Source of the DNA: Coriobacteriia bacterium
GTDB taxonomy: Bacteria; Actinomycetota; Coriobacteriia; Anaerosomatales; PALSA-660
DNA length: 63,610 nucleotides
Assembly: GCA_030652345.1 (NCBI GenBank)
Contig: JAUSAU010000064.1
Coordinates: 1-63,610, forward strand
Direction of reading: 5' to 3'
Positions 32,288-62,435 of the stretch are shown piece by piece. Under the pieces are notes generated by a model. It saw nothing but the letters and a program-made list of their open reading frames with translations, did no database searches and was not told the DNA's origin. Numbering within the stretch: the first letter of the stretch is position 1; every line of letters begins with the position of its first letter. The position numbers were made by a program, and so were the translations under genes.

Positions 32288-32340
32288 GACCTGATCGCCC
32301 TTCCGCACCTCCCCGACTCCCCTGACGAAAGGAACCCAGC

Positions 32341-33765: not shown

Positions 33766-33772
33766 CCGACCG

Positions 33773-34246
33773 ATGAGCGAGCGAGCATCCACGGCCGCGG
33801 TCCTCGGAATCGGGAACCTCCTACAGGGAGACGACGGTGTGGGCATCTTCGCGGTGCATGAACTGGAGCGCGACGCGTCTATGCGCGACGTTGACCTGTT
33901 CGACGGCGGAACGTCGCCGTTCGACATGATGCCCGTGTTCCTCGAACACGATCTGGTGGTGATCGTCGACGCCGTCCGCGCCGGCGGCGTCCCGGGCTCG
34001 CTCTACCGCGTCCTGCCGGAAGCGATCGACCGCGTCTCCGACGGCGCCCGCTTCGCGCACGGGCTCGGGGTCCCGGACACCATCCGGCTCGCCCGCGAAC
34101 TCGGATCCACAGCCCGGGTGATCGTGCTCGGAATCGAGCCGAAGGCGCTGGGCTGGTCGCTCGAACTGTCACCGGAGGTGGCGCGCTCCGTACCCGCTCT
34201 CATGGATGCGGTCCGTGACGAGTTGGGACTCGCCCGCGTGGCGTGA
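33773..34246 (+). CDS. Hydrogenase maturation protease (HyaD/HybD family)
   Basis: A 157-residue M52-type endopeptidase that trims the C terminus of the hydrogenase large subunit after nickel insertion. Motifs: VLGIGNLLQGDDGVGIFAVHEL with the nickel-sensing Glu/Asp positions, FDGGTSPFDMMPVF, VVIVDAVRAGGVPGSLYRV and the His region FAHGLGVPDTIRLAREL. ATG at 33773 is seven bases after the large-subunit stop, so it is surely co-transcribed. No HypA-F genes are in this window. A terminator follows. Confidence 0.93.
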   Translation: MSERASTAAVLGIGNLLQGDDGVGIFAVHELERDASMRDVDLFDGGTSPFDMMPVFLEHDLVVIVDAVRAGGVPGSLYRVLPEAIDRVSDGARFAHGLGVPDTIRLARELGSTARVIVLGIEPKALGWSLELSPEVARSVPALMDAVRDELGLARVA

Positions 34247-46712: not shown

Positions 46713-47399
46713 ATGGCGGTACAGCGCATCGTCGCGGTCGACGACGAGGAGTCGATCCTCAAGGTCGTGCGCTACGCGCTCGAACAGGAGGGCTACGAGG
46801 TCCACACCGCCGGCGACGCGGCCGGCGGGGCCTTTCTGGTCGGCGAAGTCCACCCCGACCTGCTCATCCTCGACGTCATGCTCCCGGGCAAGAGCGGCCT
46901 CGACCTAGCCCGCGAGATCCGGCTGACTTCGAACGTGCCGATCATCATCCTGTCGGCGCGCGGTGACGAGGTCGACCGGATACTGGGCCTCGAGTTCGGC
47001 GCCGACGACTATGTGACGAAGCCGTTCTCCCCCCGCGAGCTGGTGAGCCGCGTCAAGGCGATCCTGCGCCGGGCGGGGCAGGGCGCCAACGACCGCTCGC
47101 GCATCGTCCTGGGCGACCTGGTCGTGGACCTCGAGTCGCATCAAGTGTCGATGCGCGGCGAACCGGTGCACGTCACGACGTCGGAGTTCGGGATCCTGCA
47201 GCTGCTCGCGCCGCACCCGGGGCGCGCCTATTCGCGCGTGGAGATACTGCGCGCGCTGTGGGACGAGTCGCCTGTCGGCGACGAACGCGCCATCGACGTC
47301 CACATCCACAACATGCGGGAGAAGCTCGAGACGGATCCCAAGAACCCCGAGTATCTTCTGACGGTGCGCGGCTGCGGCTACCGGCTGAGAGAAGCGTAG
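46713..47399 (+). CDS. OmpR/PhoB-family response regulator
   Basis: A 228-residue regulator. The receiver has the acidic pair in VAVDDEESILKVVRYALEQE, phospho-acceptor Asp 54 (LLILDVMLPGKSGLD) and the Lys in DDYVTKPFSPREL. The C-terminal winged helix ends RAIDVHIHNMREKLETDPKNPEYLLTVRGCGYRL. Followed three bases later by its sensor kinase. It is a close paralogue of the regulator at 52571-53257, identical over long stretches of the receiver. Probable target: the 21-bp elements at 49185, 51598 and 59065. ATG 46713 follows GGGAG. Confidence 0.95.
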   Translation: MAVQRIVAVDDEESILKVVRYALEQEGYEVHTAGDAAGGAFLVGEVHPDLLILDVMLPGKSGLDLAREIRLTSNVPIIILSARGDEVDRILGLEFGADDYVTKPFSPRELVSRVKAILRRAGQGANDRSRIVLGDLVVDLESHQVSMRGEPVHVTTSEFGILQLLAPHPGRAYSRVEILRALWDESPVGDERAIDVHIHNMREKLETDPKNPEYLLTVRGCGYRLREA

Positions 47400-47402
47400 C
47401 CG

Positions 47403-49181
47403 GTGGCCGGGCTCAGGAGGCCCTCCGTCCGCCTGTGGCAGACAGAGCTCTTCGTCATCGTGATCGTGGTGGCCATCCTCATCCTGTCGGTGTCACTCTC
47501 ACAGGGGCTTCAGCAGACCCTCAAGCGGCTCGGCGAATCGGACCGTCTCAGTGACGCCTCCGCGCTGGCATCGCAGCTCAGTGCCGAGTTCCCGCTCACG
47601 GTCGAGAGCCGCGCCCGCATCCGGACGCAGATCCGTCACCACCGCGAGATCTATGGCGACGAAGTCTGGGTCTTCGGCGTGGACGGCTCGGTCATCGACT
47701 CGGCGCACACGGGAGGGCCCCCGGCGAACGTGCTCGAAGAGGCGCGCATCCAGGGACTCGCCGATTCGCCGCCGTACTCACAGATGACGCTCAAGCCCGG
47801 CGGCTATGTCGTCGCGGGGAAGGCGATCTACGAGCGCAACGGCCGCAGGGCCGCCAGTGTCGTCATCGCCGGACCCGTCACCCAGTCGCTCGCGGTGCTC
47901 GACTCGGTGCGCGATCAGCTGTGGAACACCTTCTGGATCGCGCTGATCGTCTCGGGCCTCCTGGGACTCGGCTTCGCGGAGTTCATCGGCCGGCGCGTGC
48001 GGCAGATGTCGAAGGCCGCAGCGGCCATCGCGGGCGGCGACTTCGACCAGCAGCTGCCCACCGGCCTCATTCCCGACGAGATCTACGAGCTCGCCGAGTC
48101 GTACAACCGCATGGCCATCACGCTGGGCGAGGCGTTCTCGACGCTCCACGAACGCGAACAGGAGATCGCCGCGGTCGTCGAGTCCATGGGCGAGGGGGTG
48201 GTCGCCTTCGATTCCGCGGGCATGATCCGCGTCATCAACCCGGAGGCGATCCTTCTGCTGGGGCTGGAAGGCGAGCCGATGGACATGGCGTCGCGCCATC
48301 TGACCGACCTCACGGCGGATCCGGCGATCCTCGACCTCGTGGACCGGGGGCTCGCCGGCCCGGTCGTCTCCGACATCGTCACGCTCGAGGACCGGACCGT
48401 GCTCCTGCACAGCACGCCGATCGTCTCGACCGAAGGTACCGTCGAGGGCGCCGTCCTGCTCATGAGCGACATCACGGAGCAGAAGCGCCTCGAGGAGGCC
48501 CAGCGGCGCTTCGTCGCCAACGCCAGCCACGAGATGCGCACGCCGATCTCGGCGCTCAAAGGGCTGCTCGAGCTGCTCACCGGGGGCGCGAAGGACGATC
48601 CGGACGTCCGCGACGACTTCCTGCGCACCATGACGCTCGAGGTCGACCGCCTCGGTCGTCTCGTCGCCGACCTCCTCACGCTCGCGCAACTCGAGGCCGG
48701 CAACCTGATCCTGCATCGCGAGCCGGTCCCGGTCGCCGGCCTTCTCGACGAAGTGGCGACGGTGATGCGGCCGCTCGCCGACCGGTCGAGCGTGGCGCTC
48801 GTCGTCGAAGCGCCCGACGACGGCATCGAGGCGCTGTGCGACCGCGACCGCGTCATGCAGGTGCTGCTCGGCTTCGTCGACAACGCGCTCAAACACTCGT
48901 CGAGCGGCACCGTGGTGACGCTTCGGGGAGCCGTCGACGGCTCGGTCGTCTCGCTCGAGGTGCAGGACCAGGGCATCGGGATCGACCCGGAGTCGGTCCC
49001 CCGCCTCTTCGACCGCTTCTTCCGCGTCGACGAATCGCGCGCGACCCCGCGTGGCACGGGCCTGGGCCTCTCGATCGCGAAGGAGATCGTCGAGGCGCAC
49101 GACAGCACGATCGCTGTCCGATCGCGCCTCGGTGCGGGCGCCACGTTCTCGTTCGACCTGCCCCTGGCGAAGCGTAGCTAG
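47403..49181 (+). CDS. PhoR-type sensor histidine kinase
   Basis: A 592-residue membrane kinase. One transmembrane helix (LFVIVIVVAILILSVSLSQG) and an extracytoplasmic sensor of about 140 residues are followed by a second helix (FWIALIVSGLLGLGFAEFIG), HAMP (RRVRQMSKAAAAIAGGDFDQ), a PAS domain (VVESMGEGVVAFDSAGMIRVINPEAI), HisKA with His 376 (VANASHEMRTPISAL), and HATPase_c with N box DNALKH and G boxes DQGIGID and GTGLGLSIAKE. GTG at 47403 is three bases after the regulator stop. It may serve both paralogous regulators, since none lies beside the second. Confidence 0.95.
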   Translation: MAGLRRPSVRLWQTELFVIVIVVAILILSVSLSQGLQQTLKRLGESDRLSDASALASQLSAEFPLTVESRARIRTQIRHHREIYGDEVWVFGVDGSVIDSAHTGGPPANVLEEARIQGLADSPPYSQMTLKPGGYVVAGKAIYERNGRRAASVVIAGPVTQSLAVLDSVRDQLWNTFWIALIVSGLLGLGFAEFIGRRVRQMSKAAAAIAGGDFDQQLPTGLIPDEIYELAESYNRMAITLGEAFSTLHEREQEIAAVVESMGEGVVAFDSAGMIRVINPEAILLLGLEGEPMDMASRHLTDLTADPAILDLVDRGLAGPVVSDIVTLEDRTVLLHSTPIVSTEGTVEGAVLLMSDITEQKRLEEAQRRFVANASHEMRTPISALKGLLELLTGGAKDDPDVRDDFLRTMTLEVDRLGRLVADLLTLAQLEAGNLILHREPVPVAGLLDEVATVMRPLADRSSVALVVEAPDDGIEALCDRDRVMQVLLGFVDNALKHSSSGTVVTLRGAVDGSVVSLEVQDQGIGIDPESVPRLFDRFFRVDESRATPRGTGLGLSIAKEIVEAHDSTIAVRSRLGAGATFSFDLPLAKRS

Positions 49182-49878: not shown

Positions 49879-50841
49879 ATGAGCGACGAGGCCGAGGGGA
49901 CCGACACGCCGCGTTCGCCGTGGCCGAGTCTCGGTGAGCTCGCGATCGCCGCGCTCGCGCTCCAGGCAGTCACCGGCGCCGTGATGGCCTTCGCCTACCA
50001 GCCGACGCCGGACCACGCGTATGCGAGCACGTACGCCATCGTCCACCTGATGAACTACGGCTGGCTGGTGCGCACCATCCACTCCTGGGGGGCGTTCGTG
50101 CTCACGGCGATCGTCGCCGCGCACGCTTTTCGCGCCTTTCTCGCCGCCGCGCACAAGCACCCGGGAGAGCGCACCTGGGTCCTGGGAGCGCTCTCCGGGC
50201 TGACCGCGGTCGCGCTCGGGTTCGCCGGGCGCCTGCTGCCCTGGGACCAGACCGCCTACTGGAGCACCGAGGAGGCCCTCTCCCTGCTCAGGCAGCTTCC
50301 CTACGCCGGAGGGACGATCGCCCGCGCGCTGATCGGGGGCGATGCGCTCGGGGCGACGACGCTGACGCGCTTCCATGCGGCCCACGTCACGCTGCTGCCG
50401 GCCGCACTCGCAGGGCTGCTCGTCGCGCACGTATGGTCCGCGCGCTCGACGCGTCGATCTGCGGACGCGATTCCGACTGCCACCGTCGCCCGCCGTGCGG
50501 CGATGCTGCGGGCGGCGACCGCGACGGCCTCGCTGCTGTGCCTCTACGCCGTCCTGGCGATCGTGCGGCCGGTGCCGCTCGAGCTCGTCGCCGACCCGGC
50601 TGTGGCTCCAGCGCAGACCGGTCCGGCCCTGCCGTTCCTCCTGCAGTACGGCCTGGGCCGCTACCTGCCGGATGCCGTCGCCGCCACCGTGCCCGTGGCG
50701 CTTGTCGCGCTGTTCATCGCGGTACCGTTCATCGACCGCGGCCCGTCGCGCGCTCCGCGGGACCGCATCGCCGCGATCGCCATCGGGTCGGTCGGGGCTG
50801 CGGCCGTCATCGCGTTCGTCGTGCTCGGAGCGCTTCGCTGA
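49879..50841 (+). CDS. Cytochrome b6-type membrane protein
   Basis: A 320-residue protein resembling the N-terminal half of cytochrome b/b6. Helix pairs carry histidines for two hemes: VRTIHSWGAF and AIVAAHAFRAF, then RFHAAHVTLLPAALAGLLVAHVW; GRLLPWDQTAYW is a strong family motif between helices. The C-terminal 110 residues add three more helices, including LLCLYAVLAIVRPVPLELVA, which resembles the start of a fused subunit-IV-like part. No Rieske protein or cytochrome c1 gene accompanies it. ATG 49879 follows AAGGCGGG. It converges with the multiheme operon, separated by a terminator. Confidence 0.85.
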   Translation: MSDEAEGTDTPRSPWPSLGELAIAALALQAVTGAVMAFAYQPTPDHAYASTYAIVHLMNYGWLVRTIHSWGAFVLTAIVAAHAFRAFLAAAHKHPGERTWVLGALSGLTAVALGFAGRLLPWDQTAYWSTEEALSLLRQLPYAGGTIARALIGGDALGATTLTRFHAAHVTLLPAALAGLLVAHVWSARSTRRSADAIPTATVARRAAMLRAATATASLLCLYAVLAIVRPVPLELVADPAVAPAQTGPALPFLLQYGLGRYLPDAVAATVPVALVALFIAVPFIDRGPSRAPRDRIAAIAIGSVGAAAVIAFVVLGALR

Positions 50842-50936: not shown

Positions 50937-51506
50937 CTACCGGTTGGTCGCCGCCAGGGCCGGCTCCGGCTGCAGCGCCATGCTGAGCTCGTACGCCTCC
51001 TGCTCGCGGCGGGCCATCCAGAACAGCGCGGATGCGGTCAGCATCGGACCGATGAGCGCGATGGTCACGAGTGCCCAGACGCCGGCCTCGAACCCGGCCG
51101 CCACGCCCCAGTAGATCGCAGCGCCCGAAGCGACTGCCAGCATGACGGACGCCACGCGCTCCCAGTACCAGCCCACGGCGAGCGTGGCTGCGGCACCGAG
51201 CAACGGGATGGCGGCCGCGACGAACGCGGCGCGCATGCCGGTCTGCTGGAACCAGTAGAGTCCTGCGAATGCCGTCGCGCCCCAGAAGGCACCGCCAGCG
51301 ATGACGAACGCCCGGGCGACGCCGCGCTCGAGGACGATGCGGGCCTCGGCGGCCTCAGGCGAGAACTCCTTGGCCGGCTTGACGCGCTGACGCGTCGAGA
51401 CCACGTCGTAGACCATGTAGCTGATGAGTGCCGCTGCGCCGACCACGAAGATGATCGCTCCGACGGGTCCGCCGATCATGAGAATGGCTGCGAGTATCGT
51501 TGACAT
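50937..51506 (-). CDS. Membrane protein, paralogue of 49296-49775
   Basis: A 189-residue membrane protein with an N-terminal helix absent from its paralogue (IGGPVGAIIFVVGAAALIS), followed by the shared part: RGVARAFVIAGGAFWGATAF, LLGAAATLAVGWYWERVASV, WALVTIALIGPMLTASALFW. No heme- or metal-binding motif was seen. Last gene of the minus-strand respiratory region; its ATG at 51506 follows AGGTGAGAGAC. The weaker operator copy at 51598-51618 lies 91 bases upstream, the same distance as at the paralogue. Confidence 0.72.
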   Translation of the reverse strand: MSTILAAILMIGGPVGAIIFVVGAAALISYMVYDVVSTRQRVKPAKEFSPEAAEARIVLERGVARAFVIAGGAFWGATAFAGLYWFQQTGMRAAFVAAAIPLLGAAATLAVGWYWERVASVMLAVASGAAIYWGVAAGFEAGVWALVTIALIGPMLTASALFWMARREQEAYELSMALQPEPALAATNR

Positions 51507-51597
51507 GTCTCTCACCTTTTCCACGTGTTCGTCGCCCTCAGGCGTCGAGTCCTTGGGGTGAGTATCACCGCTACGGGGGGCCGGTAGGTTCGCAGGC

Positions 51598-51618
51598 CGT
51601 TTTCCTCTTGTTAGGGTT
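51598..51618 (-). promoter_or_regulatory. Operator-like element (copy 2)
   Basis: Reading the minus strand from 51618, the first nine bases AACCCTAAC equal copy 1, and 15 of 21 positions agree. It overlaps the last codons and TAA of the cytochrome gene ending at 51611, so part of it is constrained by coding. It sits 91 bases before the start of the 51506 gene. Confidence 0.4.
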
Positions 51619-52414
51619 CTGTGAAAGCCGGCGCGGCATGGCAGAACGTGCACGACGAGAGACTGTGGCATTCGGTGCAGCTGTCCTGGCCGTGCTGCAG
51701 GACGAACGCGCGATGGCTCGTGAGCCATCCCTTCTCGTGGTTGACGTGGCATGTCTTGCACCAGCTGGTGCGGTGGCACGTGTAGCACACGCGTGTGTCC
51801 GTGCGTGCGGCGTCCGAATGGATGGTGCGCCAGTGCTCCGCGGGAAGGTGAGAGGGCGGCTTCTTCGCGTGGCACTCGTCGCAGAAGGTCAGCCCGAAGT
51901 CATGGCAGGCGAAGCATGCCTCCGTGCCCGTCCGGAGCGCCTCGGCGCCGTGGGTCTGCGGCCAGTCGGCGTGCTCGTGACGGGGTGTCCACGGCAGGAC
52001 ACGCCCGCCGTGGCACCCCCGGCAGTCGCGCGACGGGATGACCTGCGAAAGATACGGCTGGGCGTGCCTGATGGCGCGCTCACCCGTGTGGCACATCGTG
52101 CAGTCGGCGTCGAAGTCCTCGGCACGCATCCGCGATCCCGCGACAAGGCCCGGGAACGGCGAGTGACAGCGCTTGCAGAACGCCACGTCGACCCACTCGA
52201 CGGCCACGGTGGCGCTCCGCGAACCAAGGTCGACGCGCTGATGGCACTCGTGGCATGCGAGGTCGGGGAAGAGCGGGCTGCCGAGATGGATCCGGTGGAC
52301 AAGCAACTTCGAGCCCGTCTTGTCGCCGTGACAGGCGACGCACTGCTCGCGGCTGCTCGCCTGCGCGTCCCGGTGCAGGCGCTTGAGTTCGGCCTTGTCG
52401 GGCGCCGCCAGCAC
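51611..52414 (-). CDS. 11-heme cytochrome c, body (export leader lost by in-frame TAG)
   Basis: From the GTG at 52414 the product has 267 residues and eleven CXXCH sites: CVACH, CHECH, CKRCH, CTMCH, CRGCH, CFACH, CDECH, CYTCH, CKTCH, CTECH, CTFCH. It resembles the C-terminal parts of the paralogous cytochromes upstream. Cytochrome c maturation requires export, yet this frame has no signal peptide. The same frame, read upstream, continues through a single TAG (52436-52438) into a 42-residue leader. A CAG-to-TAG change would restore one protein of about 317 residues. Whether the TAG is real is a key question. Confidence 0.85.
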   Translation of the reverse strand: MLAAPDKAELKRLHRDAQASSREQCVACHGDKTGSKLLVHRIHLGSPLFPDLACHECHQRVDLGSRSATVAVEWVDVAFCKRCHSPFPGLVAGSRMRAEDFDADCTMCHTGERAIRHAQPYLSQVIPSRDCRGCHGGRVLPWTPRHEHADWPQTHGAEALRTGTEACFACHDFGLTFCDECHAKKPPSHLPAEHWRTIHSDAARTDTRVCYTCHRTSWCKTCHVNHEKGWLTSHRAFVLQHGQDSCTECHSLSSCTFCHAAPAFTEP

Positions 52415-52435
52415 GCGATAGCGCAGCTCCCACGC

Positions 52436-52564
52436 CTAGGTCGTCCAGGTGCGGGCCGGTCCGCGCGTCGGCGTGCTCGTCAGGTAGACCGCCGATGCCA
52501 AGACGGCGAGCAGGAGCGACAGCACGACGAGCCCGGTCCTCGGATCCCCGGCCGCGCGACGCAT
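52436..52564 (-). CDS. Signal-anchor leader ORF in frame with the 11-heme cytochrome
   Basis: ATG at 52564, stop TAG at 52436-52438; 42 residues, MRRAAGDPRTGLVVLSLLLA followed by VLASAVYLTSTPT, i.e. basic start, hydrophobic helix and a linker ending ARTWTT. It is exactly in frame with the cytochrome body, which continues AWELRYRVLAAPDK after the stop. The ATG is six bases downstream of the response-regulator stop, with GGGGAGGCC as ribosome site. Reading it as a lost signal anchor is my inference; alone it would be a 42-residue membrane microprotein. Confidence 0.65.
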   Translation of the reverse strand: MRRAAGDPRTGLVVLSLLLAVLASAVYLTSTPTRGPARTWTT

Positions 52565-52570
52565 GGGGCG

Positions 52571-53257
52571 TCAGGCCTCCCCGAGACGGTAGCCGTAACC
52601 GCGCACCGTCAGGAGATGCGTGGGGTTCTTCGGGTCGGGCTCGAGCTTCTCGCGGATGTTGTGGATGTGGACGTCGACGACGCGCTCGTCGCCGAACGCG
52701 GACGCCTCCCCGAGCGCGGCAAGGATCGCCTCGCGGGAGAACGCCGTGCCGGGATGCCTCGCGAGGTGCAGCATGATCTCGTACTCGGTCCGGGTCATCG
52801 GCACGACGGCATCGGCGACCCGCACCTGCCGTGAGAGCGTGTCGATCTGCAGATCGCCGACGACGATCACGGCGAGCCCTTCCGGCGCGGCGCCCGCCCG
52901 TCGCAGGACCGTCTTGACGCGACTGACCAGCTCGCGCGGCGAGAACGGCTTCGTGACGTAGTCGTCGGCGCCGAACTCGAGCCCGAGGATGCGGTCGACC
53001 TCGTCCGCCCGGGCCGAGAGCATGATGATCGGGACGTTCGACAGCGCACGCAGATCCCGCGCGATCTCGAGCCCGGACTTGCCGGGGAGCATCACGTCGA
53101 GGATCACCAGGTGCGGCGAGATCTTGAAGAACAAGGCCTCCGCGGCCGTGTGGTCACCCGCGGTGTGGACCTCGTAGCCCTCCTGCGTGAGTGCGTAGTC
53201 GACGACTTTGAGGATCGACTCCTCATCGTCGACGACCAGGATGCGTTGAACCGTCAT
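52571..53257 (-). CDS. OmpR/PhoB-family response regulator, orphan in cytochrome operon
   Basis: A 228-residue regulator, same length as the one at 46713. The receiver starts MTVQRILVVDDEESILKVVD; phospho-acceptor Asp 54 (VILDVMLPGKSGLE); DDYVTKPFSPREL. The DNA-binding domain ends VVDVHIHNIREKLEPDPKNPTHLL, nearly the same as its paralogue, so they may bind similar sites. No kinase gene is adjacent. It lies inside the multiheme operon, 26 bases after the upstream cytochrome stop and six bases before the leader ORF. ATG 53257 follows GGAGGG. Confidence 0.94.
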   Translation of the reverse strand: MTVQRILVVDDEESILKVVDYALTQEGYEVHTAGDHTAAEALFFKISPHLVILDVMLPGKSGLEIARDLRALSNVPIIMLSARADEVDRILGLEFGADDYVTKPFSPRELVSRVKTVLRRAGAAPEGLAVIVVGDLQIDTLSRQVRVADAVVPMTRTEYEIMLHLARHPGTAFSREAILAALGEASAFGDERVVDVHIHNIREKLEPDPKNPTHLLTVRGYGYRLGEA

Positions 53258-53283
53258 CGACGCCCTCCGGCCGCGGGACCCGC

Positions 53284-54177
53284 CTATTTCACGACCCTGA
53301 GGGCCGGGTTGAAGTTCTGCTTGGGAAGCTCACCGTGGCACCGCACGCAGAACGCCGCGTCGTGGCACGCCTCGCAGTTGCGGTGCGTCTTGACCTTCTC
53401 GCCGTGCGTGCTGCGCCACTTCGCCACGTGCGACCTCGGCCGCTTCGAGTGGCACTCCGCGCACCAGTCCGCCCGCCACTTGTGGCACTTCGCGCACTCG
53501 CCGCCCTGCTGCTTGTCGGGGTGGACGACCACCCAGTCAGCCGCGCGGTGGCTCGCGGGCGCGGCCTTCGCGGTGTGGCACGTCGCGCAGGCGTTCTTCG
53601 CCTGCTTGCCGTCATGGCAGGTGAGGCAGGCGGCCATCGGCGGCACGTGCTTCCCGTCCGAGCTCTTGGTGTGGACGAGGTAGGTGTGGCAACGCACACA
53701 GTCGAGCTTGAGCACCGAGACGTGTGCGCGGTGCGGGATGTTGAGGTCTCCGGACGGCGAGACGGTGCGCAGATCGATGTGGCAGCTCGAACATGAGGCG
53801 TTCGTCGGCTTCGCGAAGACGTCCAGCTTGCGGTTCGGCATGACCACGGAGAGGTACGCCTCTCCGAGCATGCGCGCGCTGTACGCCGCCTGAGCGGGCA
53901 GGTCGGGAGCCGCGTGGCACTGCTGGCACGCCACCTTCGCGTGTACCGAGGTGGACCAAGACGCGTATTCGCCGTCGAGATACGAGTAGCGCTGGAGGAA
54001 GCCGGGCTGCGAACCGATGTAGCCGGGGACTCCGACGAGGGCGACGAGGACGAGCGCCACGATCCCGACGCGGATCAGCAACCGGCGCCTGCCGGGTGTG
54101 AGGCGCATCGCATCCCGCGCGCGGATGAGCCCGTCACGCCAGGATCGCTTCTGCGAGTTCCCGTGTTCGTCCGACAC
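53284..54177 (-). CDS. Nine-heme NapC-like membrane-anchored cytochrome c
   Basis: A 297-residue cytochrome. N-terminal basic segment, then anchor helix LLIRVGIVALVLVALVGVPG; the rest is outside the membrane. Nine CXXCH sites: CQQCH, CSSCH, CVRCH, CLTCH, CATCH, CAKCH, CAECH, CEACH, CVRCH. The segment after the helix, QPGFLQRYSYLDGEYASWST, and the late unit CAECHSKRPRSHVAKWRSTHG are shared with its two upstream paralogues. NapC/NirT-like proteins take electrons from quinol and pass them to soluble or further cytochromes. GTG 54177 has AAGGAGG six bases upstream. Ends with RVVK, no second anchor. Confidence 0.92.
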   Translation of the reverse strand: MSDEHGNSQKRSWRDGLIRARDAMRLTPGRRRLLIRVGIVALVLVALVGVPGYIGSQPGFLQRYSYLDGEYASWSTSVHAKVACQQCHAAPDLPAQAAYSARMLGEAYLSVVMPNRKLDVFAKPTNASCSSCHIDLRTVSPSGDLNIPHRAHVSVLKLDCVRCHTYLVHTKSSDGKHVPPMAACLTCHDGKQAKNACATCHTAKAAPASHRAADWVVVHPDKQQGGECAKCHKWRADWCAECHSKRPRSHVAKWRSTHGEKVKTHRNCEACHDAAFCVRCHGELPKQNFNPALRVVK

Positions 54178-54211
54178 CGTTCCTCCTTCGACGCATCAGG
54201 GGCGGACCCCG

Positions 54212-55045
54212 TCAGTCGTGGCACTTCCTGCAGGACTTCCCGCCCTCGTGACACACGAGGCACCCCTTGTCGCCACCGGCCTTCGCGACGGCGCCATGGA
54301 GCTTCTTCCAGTTGCCGGCGTGCGACGCCGGCCGCTTGAGATGGCACTCGCGACAGAAGTCCGGCGACCACGCGTGGCACGATCCGCAATCGATCGTCCG
54401 CGCGAGCGTGCTGTGCACCTCGAGCCAGTCCTTGCGGCGATGGTTGTCGGGCACCTGCTTGCGCGTGTGGCACTTCACGCACTTGTCCGTCGCGCTCTTG
54501 CCGTTGTGGCATGCGCTCAGGCACGCCGACATCGACGGCTTGTTGTAGCCCAGCGTGTTGCGGACGTGGACGAGGTCCTTGTGGCATACCGCGCAGTCGA
54601 GTTTGAGCACCTCGACGTGTGCGCGATGCGGGATGAGCAGATCGCCGTTGGGCGAGACCTGCCGGTAGCCGGTGTGGCACTCCTGGCAAGCGGCCCTGCC
54701 CGGGACGCCGAAGAGGTTGGCCGGCCGCGGTCCGTGGAGGAGCTGCGAGTAGAACGCCGGGATCGACTTCGCCGCGAACGTCAGGAACCCGCTGACGCCC
54801 GGTTCGACATGGCAACCGGAGCACGGCACCTTCGCGTGTGTCGACTGGGACCAGTTGTCCATGCGCGGTCCGAGGTCGGCATAACGCCGGTAGTAGCCCG
54901 GCTGCAGGAGCGAGAAGACCGGCAGCCCGACGATGACGATGATCGCGAGCGCGATGACGCTCTTGATCGGGAAGTGCAGCCGGCGCGCGGGAGCAGGTGC
55001 GCTCCCGTCATCCGCCACGCGTGTGTCGTCATCTCGACCGCTCAC
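54212..55045 (-). CDS. Nine-heme NapC-like cytochrome c with one CX3CH site
   Basis: A 277-residue cytochrome. Anchor helix SVIALAIIVIVGLPVFSLLQ, then PGYYRRYADLGPRMDNWSQS. Eight CXXCH sites (CSGCH, CQECH, CAVCH, CVKCH, CGSCH, CRECH, CLVCH, CRKCH) and one CX3CH (CLSACH, in the place of CLTCH of the paralogue at 53284). The unit CRECHLKRPASHAGNWKKLHG is shared among the family. GTG 55045 abuts the TAA of the upstream gene, with AAGGAG inside the end of that gene. Function as a link in the multiheme chain is inferred from context. Confidence 0.92.
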   Translation of the reverse strand: MSGRDDDTRVADDGSAPAPARRLHFPIKSVIALAIIVIVGLPVFSLLQPGYYRRYADLGPRMDNWSQSTHAKVPCSGCHVEPGVSGFLTFAAKSIPAFYSQLLHGPRPANLFGVPGRAACQECHTGYRQVSPNGDLLIPHRAHVEVLKLDCAVCHKDLVHVRNTLGYNKPSMSACLSACHNGKSATDKCVKCHTRKQVPDNHRRKDWLEVHSTLARTIDCGSCHAWSPDFCRECHLKRPASHAGNWKKLHGAVAKAGGDKGCLVCHEGGKSCRKCHD

Positions 55046-56053
55046 TTAGCGCATCTCCTTGAACTGCTTGTGGCACTCGTCGCACCACGGCTTCTTGTGG
55101 CAGGTCAGGCACCGGCGCTCGTCCTTCGACACGGCCTTGTGCCGCGCGAGCCACGTCGACTTCGGCCCGTGGAACGCCGGGCGCTGAGCGTGGCAGTCGT
55201 TGCACTCACCCTCGGAGACGTGACAGACGAGGCACTTCGCCGGATCCTGCAGCGCGATCGTGCCGTGCTGCGCGATCCAGTCCTTCTTCACGTGCAGCCG
55301 CTCGATGGCCGACACGCCGGCGGTGGCGACGTTGGACGAGAAGACCGGGGTCTTGCCGGTCGTATGGCACAGGCGGCACTGATCGGCGGCGTGGCACTTC
55401 TCCAGGCAGGCGTTCGGCCCGTAGGAGCGCACCGTCGTGCGATGACTCGCCTTCCAGGGGGTGCGACCCTCCTGCAGCACGTGGTGGCAGTTGGCGCAGT
55501 CCTTCAGGGGCTTGGTGCCGACGTGACAGGCGAACGAGGCGCACACGCCGCTGAACGGCATCGACTTGTGGCGCTCCTGGTACGTCTCCTCGTGCGCGGT
55601 CCACTTGTGGCACTTCACGCACTCGCGCGTCTCGCTCACCACGCGCAGATGGGCGGGATGCGGGACCTTCATCGTGCGCGAGGAGTCCTCGCTCCAGTCG
55701 TACCGGTGGCACGCGAGGCAGGCGCCGTTGCTCGGCGCGGGAAGCGCGACGAAGAGCGGCTCACCCGGCGTCGCGACCAGCCCGCGGTAGAAGTCGCCCA
55801 CCTTGGCGGCGGCCGACACGAGCGTCCCGCGGCTGTCGACGTGGCACGCGTCGCACGGCAGATTCTTGTGCGCCGAGGTCTGGAGGGTCGTGTGGCGCCG
55901 CGTCAGGCTCGAGTACTTCGCGAAGTACCCCGGCCCGGCGGTCAGTACGAGTGCTGCCACCACGGCGACCGCGATCGCCGCGACGATACCGGCGCCCGCC
56001 CACAGCGCGATGCGACCGGAGCCGCCTCGTGTCTCCTTGGCTTCGGGGCTCAC
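55046..56053 (-). CDS. 11-heme NapC-like cytochrome c with CX3CH and CX4CH sites
   Basis: A 335-residue cytochrome. Anchor: IALWAGAGIVAAIAVAVVAA followed by GPGYFAKYSSLTRRHTTLQT. Nine CXXCH sites (CDACH, CLACH, CVKCH, CANCH, CRLCH, CLVCH, CNDCH, CLTCH, CDECH), one CX4CH (CASFACH) and one CX3CH (CLEKCH), a total of 11 possible hemes. CNDCHAQRPAFHGPKSTWLA is the family unit. GTG 56053 overlaps the stop of the NrfD gene (GTGA), so it is coupled to it, suggesting direct electron exchange with NrfD. Confidence 0.92.
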   Translation of the reverse strand: MSPEAKETRGGSGRIALWAGAGIVAAIAVAVVAALVLTAGPGYFAKYSSLTRRHTTLQTSAHKNLPCDACHVDSRGTLVSAAAKVGDFYRGLVATPGEPLFVALPAPSNGACLACHRYDWSEDSSRTMKVPHPAHLRVVSETRECVKCHKWTAHEETYQERHKSMPFSGVCASFACHVGTKPLKDCANCHHVLQEGRTPWKASHRTTVRSYGPNACLEKCHAADQCRLCHTTGKTPVFSSNVATAGVSAIERLHVKKDWIAQHGTIALQDPAKCLVCHVSEGECNDCHAQRPAFHGPKSTWLARHKAVSKDERRCLTCHKKPWCDECHKQFKEMR

Positions 56054-57306
56054 AGCGTCACCTCCGCTTCAAGCACCGGCTCGGGTGCGGGATCGCCGTG
56101 TGCCGCGCGCTCGTCATCCCCGTGCTCGGGCACCTCGAGCGGCAGGACCTTCGCCGCCGCGGTCACCGTGAGGAGTCCGAGCGACAGGATGAACAGGGCG
56201 ATACCGACCTCGGTCAGGCTCGGGACGAAGACCGCCGCGTGCTGGCCGAGCGGGTCGATCGCGAAGCCCATCGCCATGAGCGAGTAGCGCTTGAAGTAGA
56301 CGGCGACGACGTAGAGCCCGGAAGCGGTGAGCTGCACGATCGGCAGGTGCCGTGTCTTGCGTCGCTGCAGGATGAAGAACGCGGTGAACCCGAGTACGAA
56401 GACGGGCAGGACCGCCCACGCATAGCCGCCGGTGAAGAACACGGCCATCCGCATCGCGTGTCCCGGCTGGGCCGAGGTCGGCCAGAAGATCGCGATGACC
56501 TCGACCACCAGCAGGAACAGGTCGATGATCATGACCGTCGCGAGCAGGGTCGACAGGCTGCGGAACATGCTCGATTTGAACTTGAGCACGCCGAAGTGTT
56601 GCAGGGTGTACGCGAAGATCATCAGCAGCGCCACGCCGGATGCGGTCGCCGAGGTCAGGAAGATCGGCACCATGACCGCCGAGTTCCACAGCTCGCGCGA
56701 CTTGTTCATCGAGAGCACGAACGCGGTGGTCGTGTGCATATAGATCGCCAACGGCAGGGCGACGAGCGTGAGGCGGAACGCGAGCTTCTCCCCGCCCCAA
56801 CCGGTGAGCAGGACCCACAGGTCGAAGAAGGCGATGAGCATGTAGATCGTCGCGGCGCTGCCGGTGTAGACGAACGGCGACGTCGGGTTCGGCGTCACGA
56901 GCATCCACACCGCACGCCACGGGCGCTCCATGTCGGTGATGATGCCGAGCAACGCCATCATGACGAGCACGCCGGCCTGGAGCACCGCGATGCGCGAGAG
57001 CGGATGGAACTGGTGTGCGCCGAAGAGGTGGACAGCGGCGTAGACGATGAGGCCACCGGCCGCGAGCCCGACGTAGTACATGTAGTTCACGAACCACAGG
57101 CCCCACGGGTAGCTGTCGCGCATGCCCATGACACCGCCGCCGCCGCCGAGAGCGCTGCCCCAGGCGGTCAGGCCGAAGGTGGCCACGACCAGAAGCAGCG
57201 ACACGAACGCCCAGTAGCGCGGGCTTGCGGTCTTGAGGGCTCCGAGGTCGAGGTCGACGCCGATGATGCGCTTGACCCCGGGACGCGTGATCTTCGAGTC
57301 AGTCAT
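56050..57306 (-). CDS. nrfD: NrfD/PsrC-family quinone-interacting membrane protein
   Basis: A 418-residue integral membrane protein with nine or ten helices, e.g. RYWAFVSLLLVVATFGLTAW, MMALLGIITDMERPWRAVWM, SATASGVALLMIFAYTLQHF. The motif SYPWGLWFVNYMYYVGLAAGG near residue 70 is the family's quinone-site and helix-start signature. NrfD proteins carry no cofactor but exchange electrons with menaquinone and hand them to a ferredoxin-type partner, here the gene upstream. The acidic C terminus (PEHGDDERAAHGDPAPEP) is cytoplasmic or outside, unassigned. ATG 57306 is six bases after the upstream stop. Confidence 0.93.
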   Translation of the reverse strand: MTDSKITRPGVKRIIGVDLDLGALKTASPRYWAFVSLLLVVATFGLTAWGSALGGGGGVMGMRDSYPWGLWFVNYMYYVGLAAGGLIVYAAVHLFGAHQFHPLSRIAVLQAGVLVMMALLGIITDMERPWRAVWMLVTPNPTSPFVYTGSAATIYMLIAFFDLWVLLTGWGGEKLAFRLTLVALPLAIYMHTTTAFVLSMNKSRELWNSAVMVPIFLTSATASGVALLMIFAYTLQHFGVLKFKSSMFRSLSTLLATVMIIDLFLLVVEVIAIFWPTSAQPGHAMRMAVFFTGGYAWAVLPVFVLGFTAFFILQRRKTRHLPIVQLTASGLYVVAVYFKRYSLMAMGFAIDPLGQHAAVFVPSLTEVGIALFILSLGLLTVTAAAKVLPLEVPEHGDDERAAHGDPAPEPVLEAEVTL

Positions 57307-57312
57307 GTCCCG

Positions 57313-58233
57313 TCACCCCACATACCAGATCATGGGTTCGGAACCCATCGACTCTTTGAGTCTGAACACGCGCCGTGTCTTCAGGAGCACCGAGACCTCG
57401 CTCTCCGGGTCGTTCAGGTCACCGAACTTGCGTGCTCCCACAGGACAGGCCTCGGTGCACTTGGTGGTCATCCCGTTGCGGGTGCGCTGGATGCAGAACG
57501 TGCACTTCTCCACGACGCCCGCCTTGTCCTCGAGCGGAACCTTCGGGTTGATCTCGTTCTCGGGGACCTCGGGCTCGACCCAGTTGAAGTGCCGGGCGCC
57601 GTACGGGCACGTGACCATACAGTTCCTGCACGCGATGCACTTGTTGTAGTCGATGACGACGGTGCCGTCAGGCTCCCGCCACGTGGCCTTCACGGGACAG
57701 CCGTAGACGCAGGTCGGCTTCGCGCAGTGCATGCACTGGACCGGCATGTACCACTTGTCCGGCCGGCCGGCCTCTGTGTAGTTGAGGTCCGCGGTCTCCA
57801 GGTCGATCGCGCCCTGCTCCATCTCGAGCACCTGGATGTAGGTGAAGCCGGAGTTGCGGCCGATGTTGTTCTCCTTGACGCAGGCGTAGACGCACTTGCG
57901 GCACCCGACGCACGCCTTGACGTCGATGACCATCGCCCACTTCTGCTTGCCGGGAGGGTCGGCGTAGTAGACCGGCTTTCCGGGGTAGTTGACCGGGCCG
58001 TCCTCCTCGATGATCCGGGCCAGCGGGTTCTCGCCGCCCGGCGCTTCGGACGAACCTTCCGCACCCTCGGCACCCGACGCGGATGCCGGAAGCGCGCTGA
58101 TCACTGCGGGCACCGTGCCCGCGGCGATGACGCCGGCCGAGATGCCGAGACTGCGCAGGAAGTTGCGCCGCGAGAACGTCGTCTGAACGGGAGCGTCGTC
58201 CCGGGTCTCGTCGTGCTCGATGTCGTGGCTCAT
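57313..58233 (-). CDS. Tat-exported four-cluster ferredoxin subunit (NrfC/PsrB-like)
   Basis: A 306-residue iron-sulfur protein. Twin-arginine signal: SRRNFLRSLGISAGVIAAGT. Four 4Fe-4S clusters are indicated by CVGCRKCVYAC, CMHCAKPTCVYGCP, CIACRNCMVTCP and CTFCIQRTRNG...CTEACP. The order is that of electron-transfer subunits of complex iron-sulfur molybdoenzymes and NrfC. It would sit on the outer face of the membrane and exchange electrons with NrfD. No molybdopterin catalytic gene follows. ATG 58233 overlaps the stop of the upstream cytochrome gene (ATGA); its own stop precedes nrfD by six bases. Confidence 0.94.
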   Translation of the reverse strand: MSHDIEHDETRDDAPVQTTFSRRNFLRSLGISAGVIAAGTVPAVISALPASASGAEGAEGSSEAPGGENPLARIIEEDGPVNYPGKPVYYADPPGKQKWAMVIDVKACVGCRKCVYACVKENNIGRNSGFTYIQVLEMEQGAIDLETADLNYTEAGRPDKWYMPVQCMHCAKPTCVYGCPVKATWREPDGTVVIDYNKCIACRNCMVTCPYGARHFNWVEPEVPENEINPKVPLEDKAGVVEKCTFCIQRTRNGMTTKCTEACPVGARKFGDLNDPESEVSVLLKTRRVFRLKESMGSEPMIWYVG

Positions 58234-58877
58234 CGCTTCTGCCTTTCGAGGACGATCCTGCCGGCCAGGCCGACCACGAGCACTGCGGCGACCGCGGCGA
58301 CCGCGGAGAACCAGAGGGGCGTGGAGACCGGGGGGGCCGGCGGGGGCGAGGCGAGGGGCGAGAAGACGGCCCGCTCGGAGAGGACCTTGAACTGGAACCC
58401 GCTGCCCGTGAACGGAAGGAGCGGGCCCGCATAGATGTAGCCGGGAGTGTGGGGGTCGTGGCATCCGGCGGCGGTGCACTTGGGCTGGCCGCGGCCGTGC
58501 GTCCCGGCCTTGAACTCCTTGTACTTCGCAGAGTGGCAGCGGTAGCAGACCTGCGAGACGTCGCCCTTGATGTCGACGACCCCGCCGCCGGCGATCTTGA
58601 GCTTGCCGGGATCCTTCGCGGGATCGTCGTGACACGTCAGACACGCCACGTCGTCGCGGCCGAGCTTGTCGTGGCCCTCGAGCGTCACGTCGTGGCCCTT
58701 GAAACCATTGGGGAGGGGCCGCGACGGATCCTCGGTGCCCGGGATCATCGTCACCGGGTGGCAGCTCGTGCACGGGTAGAAGAACAGTTCGCCGGAGCCG
58801 GCCTGCCCGGCGAACGCCGGCGTCACCGACGCCCACAGCGCCGTGGCGAGGACAAGCAGTGCGACGGAGCGGCGCAT
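58230..58877 (-). CDS. Tetraheme cytochrome c with C-terminal membrane anchor
   Basis: A 215-residue cytochrome. Signal peptide SVALLVLATALWASVTPAFA, then three CXXCH sites (CTSCH, CLTCH, CYRCH) and one CX4CH (CTAAGCH), as in cytochrome c3/c7-type proteins. A Pro-rich linker (ASPPPAPPVSTP) leads to the C-terminal helix WFSAVAAVAAVLVVGLAGRI with a basic end, so the heme domain is held at the outer face of the membrane. First gene of the multiheme operon. ATG 58877 was chosen because it opens the signal peptide; longer forms are possible. Confidence 0.9.
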   Translation of the reverse strand: MRRSVALLVLATALWASVTPAFAGQAGSGELFFYPCTSCHPVTMIPGTEDPSRPLPNGFKGHDVTLEGHDKLGRDDVACLTCHDDPAKDPGKLKIAGGGVVDIKGDVSQVCYRCHSAKYKEFKAGTHGRGQPKCTAAGCHDPHTPGYIYAGPLLPFTGSGFQFKVLSERAVFSPLASPPPAPPVSTPLWFSAVAAVAAVLVVGLAGRIVLERQKR

Positions 58878-59224
58878 CAGAACCGGCCCGCCCCTGCCGG
58901 GACTCGCCGCCGAACATGACAGTGATCCAGCCATGTGCACTCCTGCCCGTCTCGTGGAGCCCATCGCGTCCCTGCGGGCTCCGGCCGGGTCGAGCCCGGT
59001 CGAAGGGTATGCAAGAACCTAGGCAGGAGTATGTTCCCGGGCGCGCCTGCCATTATTGGCTGTCGGTTGGCGTCATATTAGGGTTATGTGAGCACCGTGC
59101 ACGACGGCCGTCAGGCGGCACGAGCGCTGCTTGACGCGATGCCAACACCGTACGTACCGTCGGGTGTGGCGAAGGGTCCGATCGGGGCACGCCGGGACCG
59201 GATCACGGCACCGGATTGGATGTC
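58878..59224. promoter_or_regulatory. Divergent promoter region between cytochrome operons
   Basis: This 347-base gap separates the minus-strand multiheme operon from the plus-strand 12-heme gene and carries no convincing gene. It contains the 21-bp operator-like element at 59065-59085, a short AT-rich stretch around it (CATATTAGGG), and a candidate -10 TAGGGT (59079-59084) with TTGGCT 17 bases upstream for the plus strand. A shared regulator acting on both directions is plausible. Confidence 0.5.
59065..59085 (-). promoter_or_regulatory. Operator-like element (copy 3)
   Basis: Read on the minus strand from 59085, it agrees with copy 1 (49185-49205) at 18 of 21 positions; both start AACCCTAA, share TGACGC and end AACC. 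It is 187 bases upstream of the tetraheme gene start and 139 bases from the 12-heme gene start. Confidence 0.6.
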
Positions 59225-60244
59225 ATGGGCACTCCAGAAGATGGCGCATCGAGATCACACGCGGTCGTACGCGCCGCGTGGATCACCGTCGCTGTGATCG
59301 TGGGCGTCCTCGCCCTCGGCGCCGTCGCGACCTACGTGACGGCCTCCCCCACCCTGTGCGGTGCGTGTCACGAGATGAAGTCCGCCGTGGTGACCTGGGA
59401 GCAGTCTCCCCACAACCGCGTCGGGTGCCCCTCGTGCCACGAGACGCCGCGCCCCTGGTACCAGTTCCCGCAGACACTGCTGGCTCGGGGTGCGATGCTC
59501 GGTCGCGACCTCGACGCGCACTTCTCAGCCGGCTACGCGGCGACGCCGGGCACCTCGATCATGAGCACCGTGACCGTGCCCGACTCGACCTGCGAGCAGT
59601 GCCACGACCCCTCCCGCAAGGTGACCATGCGCTACGGCACCCTGATCGACCACAAGGAGCACGCCAAGCGGAACAAGTCGTGCATGTCGTGCCACGTGTG
59701 GACGGCGCACCCCACCCCGGGCTACGAGAAGCCGCTCCTCCTGATGGAGCAGTGCTTCAACTGTCATGGCAAGCCGAGCAACCCGAAGGCCTCCGGCGCC
59801 TGCACCGCATGCCACCCGGCGTCGTTCAACAAGCGTCCCGCCTCACACGGCCCCACGAAGTGGACCTCGCTTCACGGCAAAGCGGCGCTCAAGGGCATCC
59901 AGCAGTGCTCGATGTGTCATGCTGCCACGTTCTGCGGCGACTGCCATGGCGTGCCGATGCCGCACCCGGTCGGCTGGGAGGCGGGCAAGACGGGGCACGG
60001 CGTCACCGCTACGCGGGACCGCTCCATCTGTGCGAAGTGCCACACCGGCAAGGCCGACATGTGCGGGATGTGCCACCACAAGGGGTTCGAGCCGACCAAG
60101 GGGCCGTGGCTCGCCCAGCATCCCGCCATGGTCGAGAAGCGCGGCGTCGCCTTCTGCCTCGGGTGCCACGCCCCCACCTACTGCGTCTTCTGCCACGCCC
60201 GGGAAGAGCAAGAGGAGACCGAGCCGGACGCCGATAACGAGTAG
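59225..60244 (+). CDS. 12-heme NapC/NirT-like membrane-anchored cytochrome c
   Basis: A 339-residue cytochrome. Anchor helix AAWITVAVIVGVLALGAVAT, then TLCGACHEMKSAVVTWEQSP and HNRVGCPSCHETPRPWYQFP, the NapC/NirT start. Twelve CXXCH sites: CGACH, CPSCH, CEQCH, CMSCH, CFNCH, CTACH, CSMCH, CGDCH, CAKCH, CGMCH, CLGCH, CVFCH. It carries the family unit KRPASHGPTKWTSLHG. Compared with the minus-strand paralogues it has an extra heme right after the helix, as in canonical NapC. ATG 59225 was chosen; TTG 59216 is the alternative. Divergent from the multiheme operon; likely quinol-linked. Confidence 0.92.
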   Translation: MGTPEDGASRSHAVVRAAWITVAVIVGVLALGAVATYVTASPTLCGACHEMKSAVVTWEQSPHNRVGCPSCHETPRPWYQFPQTLLARGAMLGRDLDAHFSAGYAATPGTSIMSTVTVPDSTCEQCHDPSRKVTMRYGTLIDHKEHAKRNKSCMSCHVWTAHPTPGYEKPLLLMEQCFNCHGKPSNPKASGACTACHPASFNKRPASHGPTKWTSLHGKAALKGIQQCSMCHAATFCGDCHGVPMPHPVGWEAGKTGHGVTATRDRSICAKCHTGKADMCGMCHHKGFEPTKGPWLAQHPAMVEKRGVAFCLGCHAPTYCVFCHAREEQEETEPDADNE

Positions 60245-62192: not shown

Positions 62193-62435
62193 GGAGCGCC
62201 TCCAAGGTCTGCGGGAGGGCCCCCGGCGGAGGCCGCACGTTGCCCTCCCATTGTACGCCCGGCCGTCCAGTCCCCGGTCTCGCGAGCGCACACGCGCACC
62301 TCGCGCTCGTCGGATTCAGCGTCTCACAGCAGCACGCATGCGGGTGCTTACGGGAATAGCGATGTTCAGGGGGGCTGGAGCACCCAGGATGAAGCGACGC
62401 CGCGGTGCCGTTTCAGCAAGGGCAAGGGGGCGATC

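What the first reader, a model, noticed from the sequence alone, without database searches (positions are those of the whole stretch)
50937..60244. A quinone-linked multiheme cytochrome conduit with no catalytic molybdoenzyme
Seen: on the minus strand a tightly packed operon encodes a tetraheme anchored cytochrome, a Tat-exported four-cluster ferredoxin, NrfD, three NapC-like cytochromes (11, 9, 9 heme sites), a response regulator and an 11-heme cytochrome; a divergent 12-heme NapC-like gene brings the total to 56 heme sites. Starts and stops overlap or abut for the first five genes. Known: ferredoxin-plus-NrfD pairs occur in Nrf, Psr, Qrc and alternative complex III, each with a further partner. 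Here no molybdopterin or Rieske partner exists and several cytochromes take its place. Inference: the module moves electrons between menaquinone and extracytoplasmic acceptors or donors, perhaps for extracellular electron transfer, and may be a new complex type.
Basis: partly seen in the sequence, partly recalled or inferred. Interest (0 to 1): 0.88.

Follow-up and report, generated by a model that had tools for sequence, protein, structure and literature searches.

The report
Quinone-linked multiheme cytochrome wire operon
An uncultured environmental actinobacterium carries an operon, repeated gene for gene in its relatives, that appears to connect the membrane quinone pool to a bundle of heme-packed proteins without a recognisable enzyme active site, most likely to move electrons to or from the outside of the cell.

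Summary
The operon is real and correctly read: 56 heme sites (52 CXXCH, 4 variants), first five genes overlapping or abutting. One correction: the last 11-heme gene (C11) has an in-frame stop between its membrane anchor and its heme domain. The core A4h-FeS-NrfD-C335-C277-C297 is conserved in Coriobacteriia: wherever the contig leaves room, A4h is present in 28/28 loci, FeS 30/30, C335 29/29, C277 29/29, C297 28/28. Of 396 genomes of the class, 31 have NrfD or C335 and 29 have both; the two single finds are at contig ends. No molybdoenzyme (PF00384) lies within about 65 kb on the operon contig in 34 genomes, though many contigs are short. The big cytochromes are paralogs of the NrfH family. 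Only the divergent 12-heme C12 keeps the quinol heme (CxxCHxM); C335, C277 and C297 lack it. Conserved axial ligands can account for every core heme. The first three genes form a DsrJOP/Cbc4-like quinone module, so a Mo-free FeS-NrfD-cytochrome system is not new; the attached set of NrfH-derived wires is. New variant of a known kind. Direction of flow is not shown.

The parts
58230..58877 (-). A4h: tetraheme c-type cytochrome (3 CXXCH + 1 CX4CH) with a C-terminal membrane span
   Evidence: 4 hemes and 4 conserved extra His in 29 sequences
57313..58233 (-). FeS: Tat-exported ferredoxin with four 4Cys motifs; best named relative DsrO (178.9 bits, cut-off 200)
56050..57306 (-). NrfD: 10-span membrane subunit; best named relative DsrP (126.8 bits, cut-off 350); invariant D125 and S143 have the 18-residue spacing of published quinone-site residues
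55046..56053 (-). C335: 11-heme, one-span NrfH-family cytochrome lacking heme 1; 11 hemes and 11 conserved extra His
54212..55045 (-). C277: 9-heme, one-span paralog lacking heme 1
53284..54177 (-). C297: 9-heme, one-span paralog lacking heme 1
52571..53257 (-). RR2: OmpR/PhoB-type response regulator in the operon
52436..52564 (-). C11 anchor: 42 codons with one membrane span, ending in an in-frame stop
51611..52414 (-). C11 heme domain: 11 CXXCH, paralog of the others; uninterrupted gene in L017, L021, L026, L072
50937..51506 (-). memA: small multi-span membrane protein, recurrent neighbour of the operon or its kinase
59225..60244 (+). C12: divergent 12-heme NapC/NrfH-family cytochrome that keeps the quinol heme (CGACHEM); likely second quinol entry point
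46713..49181 (+). RR1 and HK1: two-component pair; homologs lie beside the operon in many relatives
49879..50841 (+). cytochrome b (b6/ExtP-like), possible extra quinol module; among the fetched loci seen only in L026 and L072

Best explanation
The operon encodes a menaquinone-linked electron conduit with no recognisable substrate-converting site of its own. Shown by sequence: a DsrJOP/Cbc4-like core (tetraheme cytochrome A4h, Tat-exported four-cluster ferredoxin, 10-span NrfD) is encoded, in every locus with room, with three one-span multiheme cytochromes (11, 9, 9 hemes) and usually with a 12-heme one; all four are NrfH-family paralogs, and only the 12-heme one keeps the quinol heme. Inferred: menaquinol is oxidised at NrfD, with electrons passing through the ferredoxin to A4h, and, where C12 is present, also at C12. 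The three heme-1-less proteins have given up quinol chemistry and act as fixed wires that collect these electrons on the outer face of the membrane and pass them to wall or surface cytochromes (such as the 782- and 773-residue multiheme proteins near the operon in L004 and L006), and so to Fe(III), humics, a partner cell or another external acceptor. A two-component system probably switches it on. Direction and final acceptor are not shown.
For: Synteny without exception where contigs allow (28/28, 30/30, 29/29, 29/29, 28/28 of 35 loci, from 32 genomes by contig matching); both genes in 29 of the 31 genomes with either among 396, the two exceptions at contig ends. Conserved (90% or more) extra ligands: A4h 4 His for 4 hemes, C335 11 His for 11, C277 and C297 8 His plus one Met for 9, C12 11 His plus the CHxM Met (21 of 22 sequences) for 12. 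No CXXCK in the window's cytochromes. C335 aligns with NrfH (2j7a_C, E 1.7e-6) with NrfH heme 1 falling on non-heme residues, while C12 aligns with it motif on motif; NrfH M49 and D89 align with C12 M51 and D95. NrfD D125/S143 match the spacing of DsrP1 D106/S124 and QrcD D120/S138. Futalosine-pathway gene family PF02621 in 24 of 34 genomes; MqnC is the gene next to C297 in L079, on the opposite strand. Cbc4 and SirCD precedents. Fe(III)-reducing cultured member of the same class (PMC9686372); one operon locus, L022, is titled Anaerosomatales.
Confidence: 0.52

Rival explanations
1. Same conduit, opposite direction: electrons from H2 or an external donor enter through the multiheme proteins and reduce menaquinone through A4h, FeS and NrfD, as proposed for Nhc and Qrc.
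For: Nhc and Qrc are listed as cytochrome c3:quinone oxidoreductases (PMC8076601). The window carries a [NiFe(Se)]-type hydrogenase at 31367-34246 whose small subunit begins with a Tat-like motif, with no cytochrome b gene beside it, a kind that elsewhere gives electrons to cytochrome c (recalled). Cultured relatives oxidise H2 (PMC9686372).
Against: The hydrogenase is about 17 kb from the operon and its linkage in relatives was not tested. C12 has features of a quinol oxidase. The paper reports a cytochrome b subunit with the isolates' hydrogenase, which would bypass this route.
Confidence: 0.25
2. Two independent systems share one regulon: an A4h-FeS-NrfD complex and a separate C12-to-wire chain of the ImdcA/CymA kind that never exchange electrons.
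For: C12 and its paralogs form a family apart from A4h. Clusters of C277/C297/C12-like cytochromes occur without FeS-NrfD in the stretches of up to 20 kb fetched from other genomes (L072-L078, L087). C12 changes place, divergent or downstream.
Against: C335, C277 and C297 are with FeS-NrfD in each of the 28-29 loci where they could be seen, and C335 overlaps nrfD in the window. L020 has the core and wires without a C12 in the locus. Pairwise distances of A4h correlate with those of the three wires at r 0.82-0.84; those of NrfD less (0.56-0.64; 24 sequences), which leaves room for this rival.
Confidence: 0.15
3. A hidden reductase: one of the cytochromes is catalytic (nitrite, sulfite or another oxyanion).
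For: A more distant module (L027/G012 and L086/G080) ends in a protein with a Cytochrom_C552 domain and, in L027, a CXXCK motif. One of the 11 hemes of C11 has no conserved extra ligand.
Against: No CXXCK in the window; conserved ligands can account for every heme of the core; NrfA (PF02335) in 7 of the 32 genomes with the wire operon and not on its contigs.
Confidence: 0.07
4. A DsrJOP half-complex that works with DsrMK encoded elsewhere, linking the chain to cytoplasmic thiol chemistry.
For: FeS and NrfD score best against DsrO and DsrP. CCG-domain proteins (PF02754) occur in 33 of 34 genomes.
Against: Both scores are below cut-off; A4h has 4 hemes, not 3. By the coordinates the nearest CCG protein on an operon contig is about 12.7 kb from A4h (G129). 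CCG proteins are common (10 of 14 control genomes).
Confidence: 0.05

Closest known systems
DsrJOP half of DsrMKJOP
   Same: c-type cytochrome + Tat FeS (DsrO) + 10-span NrfD (DsrP); best NCBIfam scores
   Different: tetraheme with a C-terminal span instead of triheme DsrJ; no DsrK-like CCG protein beside it; scores below the curated cut-offs; extra multiheme cytochromes
Geobacter Cbc4 (CbcSTU)
   Same: c-type cytochrome, FeS protein and integral membrane subunit without a molybdoenzyme, described as menaquinol:ferricytochrome c oxidoreductase; CbcT is called homologous to DsrO (passages of PMC11434368)
   Different: three genes only; the passages call CbcU a b-type cytochrome while implying an NrfD annotation (NrfD kinship recalled); no linked NrfH-derived wires reported there; sequences not compared here
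NhcABCD and Hmc of sulfate reducers
   Same: multiheme cytochrome with FeS and NrfD-like subunits (Nhc: PMC8076601; Hmc: PMC4215793, FeS subunit from the NCBIfam name)
   Different: one 9- or 16-heme cytochrome; HmcB 97.6 of 420 and HmcC 61.9 of 550 bits
NrfH / NapC / CymA quinol dehydrogenases; ImdcA of Thermincola
   Same: C12: one N-terminal span, CxxCHxM heme 1, Pfam NapC/NirT 43 bits, NrfH alignment; ImdcA is a membrane-anchored decaheme proposed to oxidise quinol in a Gram-positive (passages of PMC7911101)
   Different: 12 hemes; NCBIfam NrfH score 50.0 of 134.2; three paralogs beside it have lost heme 1; ImdcA sequence not compared
NrfBCD + NrfA
   Same: cytochrome, FeS and NrfD feeding a periplasmic multiheme protein; the L027 module ends in an NrfA-like protein
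   Different: window NrfD has 10 spans and scores 19.5 of 347.6 against NrfD; no CXXCK in the window's cytochromes
Alternative complex III
   Same: best-scoring PDB chains for FeS and NrfD are ActB and ActC of 6f0k
   Different: no ActB molybdopterin-like domain in the FeS protein; one NrfD in the operon; tetraheme A4h instead of pentaheme ActA (ActA heme number recalled)

Membership tests
DsrMKJOP | DsrO and DsrP above curated cut-offs | tested here: not met
   178.9 of 200 and 126.8 of 350 bits; of the proteins only the distant L027 FeS passes DsrO (206.2)
DsrMKJOP | DsrK/DsrM encoded beside JOP | tested here: not met
   PF02754 proteins in 33 of 34 genomes but none in the operon; nearest on an operon contig about 12.7 kb from A4h; DsrM itself not searched; many contigs short
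DsrMKJOP | triheme DsrJ | tested here: not met
   A4h has 4 heme motifs, conserved in 90% or more of 29 sequences
Cbc4-like menaquinol:cytochrome c oxidoreductase | contiguous c-type cytochrome, FeS and NrfD-like genes without a molybdoenzyme | tested here: met
   PF00384 not on the operon contig except three genomes at about 70-245 kb
Cbc4-like menaquinol:cytochrome c oxidoreductase | sequence orthology to CbcS/CbcT/CbcU | not tested
   no Geobacter sequences fetched
Qrc | QrcB molybdopterin-like subunit; QrcC and QrcD above cut-off | tested here: not met
   150.1 of 400 and 38.4 of 570 bits; no molybdopterin domain among the ten proteins
Hmc | HmcB and HmcC above cut-off | tested here: not met
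   97.6 of 420 and 61.9 of 550
NrfABCD | NrfA with CXXCK; NrfC and NrfD above cut-off | tested here: not met
   101.2 of 377.6 and 19.5 of 347.6; no CXXCK
NapC/NrfH family (C12) | Pfam NapC/NirT domain | tested here: met
   PF03264 43 bits, cut-off 24.1; the narrower NrfH equivalog is not met, 50.0 of 134.2
NapC/NrfH family (C12) | CxxCHxM heme 1 with the Asp of NrfH position 89 | tested here: met
   M51 and D95 align with NrfH M49 and D89, invariant in 12 sequences; M51 21 of 22. Residue roles recalled
NapC/NrfH family (C12) | basic residue of NrfH position 82 | tested here: inconclusive
   invariant R88 is seven residues before D95, as K82 before D89, but the alignment has a gap there and puts K82 on T84
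NapC/NrfH family (C335, C277, C297) | heme 1 present | tested here: not met
NapC/NrfH family (C335) | Pfam NapC/NirT domain | tested here: inconclusive
   no match in the window's C335 at E 0.01, but precomputed for many of its close homologs
NrfH fold (C335) | structural match | tested here: inconclusive
Quinone-binding NrfD | quinone-site Asp and Ser 18 apart; 10 spans as in DsrP/QrcD/ActC | tested here: met
   D125 and S143 invariant in 16 sequences; spacing from Table 2 of PMC8076601 for DsrP1, DsrP2, QrcD, NhcC, MccD (FqoC 16 and ArrC 19 differ); 10 hydropathy peaks

The most novel reading that the evidence does not exclude
One supercomplex with two different quinol sites, an NrfD-type site and an NrfH-type site (C12), feeds a shared set of 41 hemes in four NrfH paralogs, three of which gave up their own quinol heme. 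It would serve these anaerobes as a stand-in for complex III: an energy-conserving menaquinol:extracellular-acceptor oxidoreductase in bacteria that, if they resemble the two isolates described in print, lack bc1 and alternative complex III.
Probability: 0.16. Interest if true: 0.8.

Novelty: new variant of a known kind. Interest (0 to 1): 0.56.

Why it matters
The two cultured Anaerosomatales described in print use Fe(III) or sulfur compounds and have 17-18 multiheme cytochromes but, by the published text, no canonical or alternative complex III (PMC9686372, passages). This operon is a concrete, conserved candidate for how related Actinomycetota take electrons from menaquinone to a wall-side heme network. 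It gives a sharp test of how a quinol dehydrogenase family turned into pure wiring: the same scaffold with heme 1 (C12) and without it (C335, C277, C297), side by side, the latter three found together in each locus where they could be seen.

Tried and rejected
Molybdoenzyme nearby: PF00384 in 34 genomes; 30 have a match at E <= 1e-10, on the operon contig only in G011 (about 70 kb), G001 (about 209 kb) and G003 (about 243 kb). Many operon contigs are short, so distance beyond a contig end is unknown. G007, G101, G123 and G148 have none, but genomes may be incomplete. NrfA nearby: PF02335 in 9 of 34 genomes, two of them the L027 type (G012, G080), the other 7 on other contigs. The 34 genomes are the 31 with either gene, G676, G012 and G080.

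Recoding of TAG to explain C11: rejected, since C297, memA and C12 end in TAG.

Structure: C335 model moderate, best PDB matches NrfH but weak; A4h model too poor to search.

The RR or HK is not an invariable part: HK in 20 and RR in 24 of 35 loci by the thresholds. The C12 strand labels printed (26 same strand, 6 divergent, 3 none) are partly wrong where a truncated locus holds only a paralog; for C12 I rely on (23 of 35 loci with 11-12 hemes; 22 sequences). Rows left out of the count: L027, L086 (NrfA-type module, NrfD 36%), L028 (ACIII-like), L072-L078 and L087 (no FeS-NrfD in the stretch); L029-L070 are short loci, L029-L058 re-fetched pieces of operon genomes.

The E <= 1e-80 limit for NrfD orthologs was chosen; at the preset 1e-40 there are 38 genomes, the other 8 being the two NrfA-type genomes and six at 1e-41 to 1e-42. 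Rieske proteins were not searched in the other genomes; none appeared among the window proteins scanned.

Literature: searches gave no paper; some searches gave listings, and six papers were opened for passages (one also for its outline). No description of this operon was found, in a library limited to open-licence PMC papers. The three-gene multiheme cluster shared by the two isolates in PMC9686372 may or may not be C335-C277-C297; it could not be compared.

On re-checking I lowered two odds: the main explanation from 0.55 to 0.52 and the novel case from 0.20 to 0.16, because C12 is missing or a fragment in two well-covered loci and its K82 equivalent is not aligned.
Full report
What is there. 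On the minus strand from 58877 to 53284 six genes follow each other with gaps of -4, +6, -4, 0 and 34 bp: A4h (tetraheme), FeS (Tat signal, four 4Cys motifs), NrfD, C335 (11 hemes), C277 (9), C297 (9). A response regulator, an 11-heme gene (C11) and a small membrane protein (memA) follow. C12 (12 hemes) is divergent at 59225-60244. No other frame of the window has two or more CXXCH. The total is 56 sites: 52 CXXCH plus CX4CH in A4h, CX4CH and CX3CH in C335, CX3CH in C277. Shuffling each protein gives 0.01-0.16 CXXCH on average.

A correction. C11 begins with a 42-codon membrane anchor that runs into an in-frame stop at 52438-52436; the heme domain lies behind it. L017, L021, L026 and L072 carry an uninterrupted C11. 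Either the gene is broken in this organism or the contig has an error there. The conserved core does not depend on it: C11 is in 3 of 35 operon loci.

Conservation. A scan of one genome per species with an NrfD alignment gave 28 loci, 26 of them close orthologs (two short peptide patterns, so not exhaustive). With nine further loci I counted synteny in 35 loci from 32 genomes: wherever the contig had room, A4h was present in 28 of 28, FeS 30 of 30, C335 29 of 29, C277 29 of 29, C297 28 of 28, on the strand of NrfD (three loci cut before NrfD were anchored on C335). C12 with 11-12 hemes is in 23 of 35, downstream or divergent; it is absent in L020 within 10 kb on either side and a fragment in L017, the other gaps being mostly contig ends. 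In 396 genomes of the class of G009 (its locus L020 is titled Coriobacteriia), C335 is in 30 and NrfD at E <= 1e-80 in 30; 29 have both. G137 (NrfD at contig base 2) and G078 (C335 up to base 14692 of 14693) are cut by contig ends. The limit 1e-80 was set after seeing the list; at 1e-40 there are 38. In a 396-genome sample of the phylum, two genomes had a full-strength C335 match (G009 and G676) and seven only weaker, paralog-level matches. G676, whose class the tool does not tell, keeps the core order at 41-58% identity.

No catalytic partner found. Molybdopterin oxidoreductases (PF00384) were sought in 34 genomes: 11 of 12 and 19 of 22 have one or more, on the operon contig only in three and about 70-245 kb away; many operon contigs are short. 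NrfA (PF02335) is in 9 of 34: two are G012 and G080, where a related A4h-FeS-NrfD (FeS 57% and 48%, NrfD 36%) is followed by a protein with a Cytochrom_C552 domain (690 residues and a CXXCK motif in L027). A module of this kind can therefore be paired with a reductase; in the wire operon multiheme wires take that place.

The quinone module. FeS and NrfD score best against DsrO and DsrP, below the cut-offs (the same for four proteins from L009, L020 and L022 and for the G676 FeS). NrfD has ten predicted spans, as listed for DsrP, QrcD and ActC, and invariant Asp125 and Ser143 at the 18-residue spacing that Table 2 of PMC8076601 gives for quinone-site residues of DsrP1, DsrP2, QrcD, NhcC and MccD. 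The futalosine-pathway family PF02621 is in 24 of 34 genomes, and in L079 MqnC is the gene next to C297, on the opposite strand.

Mechanism. Most likely menaquinol is oxidised at NrfD (through FeS to A4h) and, where present, at C12, and the three heme-1-less paralogs carry electrons along and away from the membrane. Outward flow is favoured because C12 looks like a quinol oxidase, Cbc4 and SirCD are described that way (PMC11434368) and a cultured member of the class reduces Fe(III) (PMC9686372). The opposite flow, from H2 or an external donor to menaquinone, is a serious rival: the window has a hydrogenase without a cytochrome b gene beside it, and Nhc and Qrc are assigned that direction. That the cytochromes and FeS-NrfD form one complex is supported by synteny and gene overlap, not shown; NrfD distances correlate less well with the wires (r 0.56-0.64) than A4h distances do (0.82-0.84).

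Novelty. PMC9686372 mentions a three-gene multiheme cluster shared by two isolates that might be part of it; I could not compare them.

Noticed in passing
window 52436-52564 and 51611-52435: In-frame stop between the membrane anchor and the 11-heme domain of C11; four relatives are uninterrupted. Broken gene or contig error.
   Followed up: partly
L027:8346-13011 (G012) and L086 (G080): Related cytochrome/FeS/NrfD module (cytochrome here with 3 hemes) followed by a protein with a Cytochrom_C552 domain (CXXCK in L027): an Nrf-like version with a catalytic end.
   Followed up: partly
window 31367-34246: [NiFe(Se)]-type hydrogenase small and large subunits plus protease, small subunit starting with a Tat-like motif, with no cytochrome b gene beside them.
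   Followed up: partly
window 49879-50841; L026:6758-7318; L072: Cytochrome b of b6/ExtP type near C11 in the window and in G398, and near memA in L026; possibly a separate cytochrome b plus multiheme quinol module.
   Followed up: no
window 46713-47399 and 52571-53257: Two similar response regulators, one inside the operon and one with a kinase next door, suggesting duplication of the regulator.
   Followed up: no
window 60264-62291: Beta-propeller protein (Lactonase/YNCE-like) downstream of C12; an NHL-propeller gene also sits near a 12-heme gene in L077.
   Followed up: no
L073, L074, L075 (G398, G427, G413): Clusters of two 10-heme C297-like genes and a 12-heme gene next to what look, by eye, like heme-biosynthesis genes and a Rex-type repressor; no FeS-NrfD in the stretch.
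   Followed up: no
L004:9099-11447 and L006:892-3213: Related 782- and 773-residue multiheme proteins beside (L004) or about 5 kb from (L006) the operon, with MtrC/MtrF-like domain scores above cut-off; candidate surface reductase.
   Followed up: partly
L079:12528-13628 and L016:9508-10635: MqnC, and a geranylgeranyl-reductase-family gene just under its cut-off, each next to C297 on the opposite strand: menaquinone-related neighbours.
   Followed up: partly
L017:7623-7823 and L020: C12 is reduced to a 4-heme fragment in L017 and missing within 10 kb in L020, while the rest of the operon is intact.
   Followed up: no
window 56050-57306: The window's NrfD is closest to L004, L002, L005 and L023 (71-73%), which have C12 downstream, while its cytochromes are closest to L026, L017, L079 or L021: possible recombination within the operon.
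   Followed up: no
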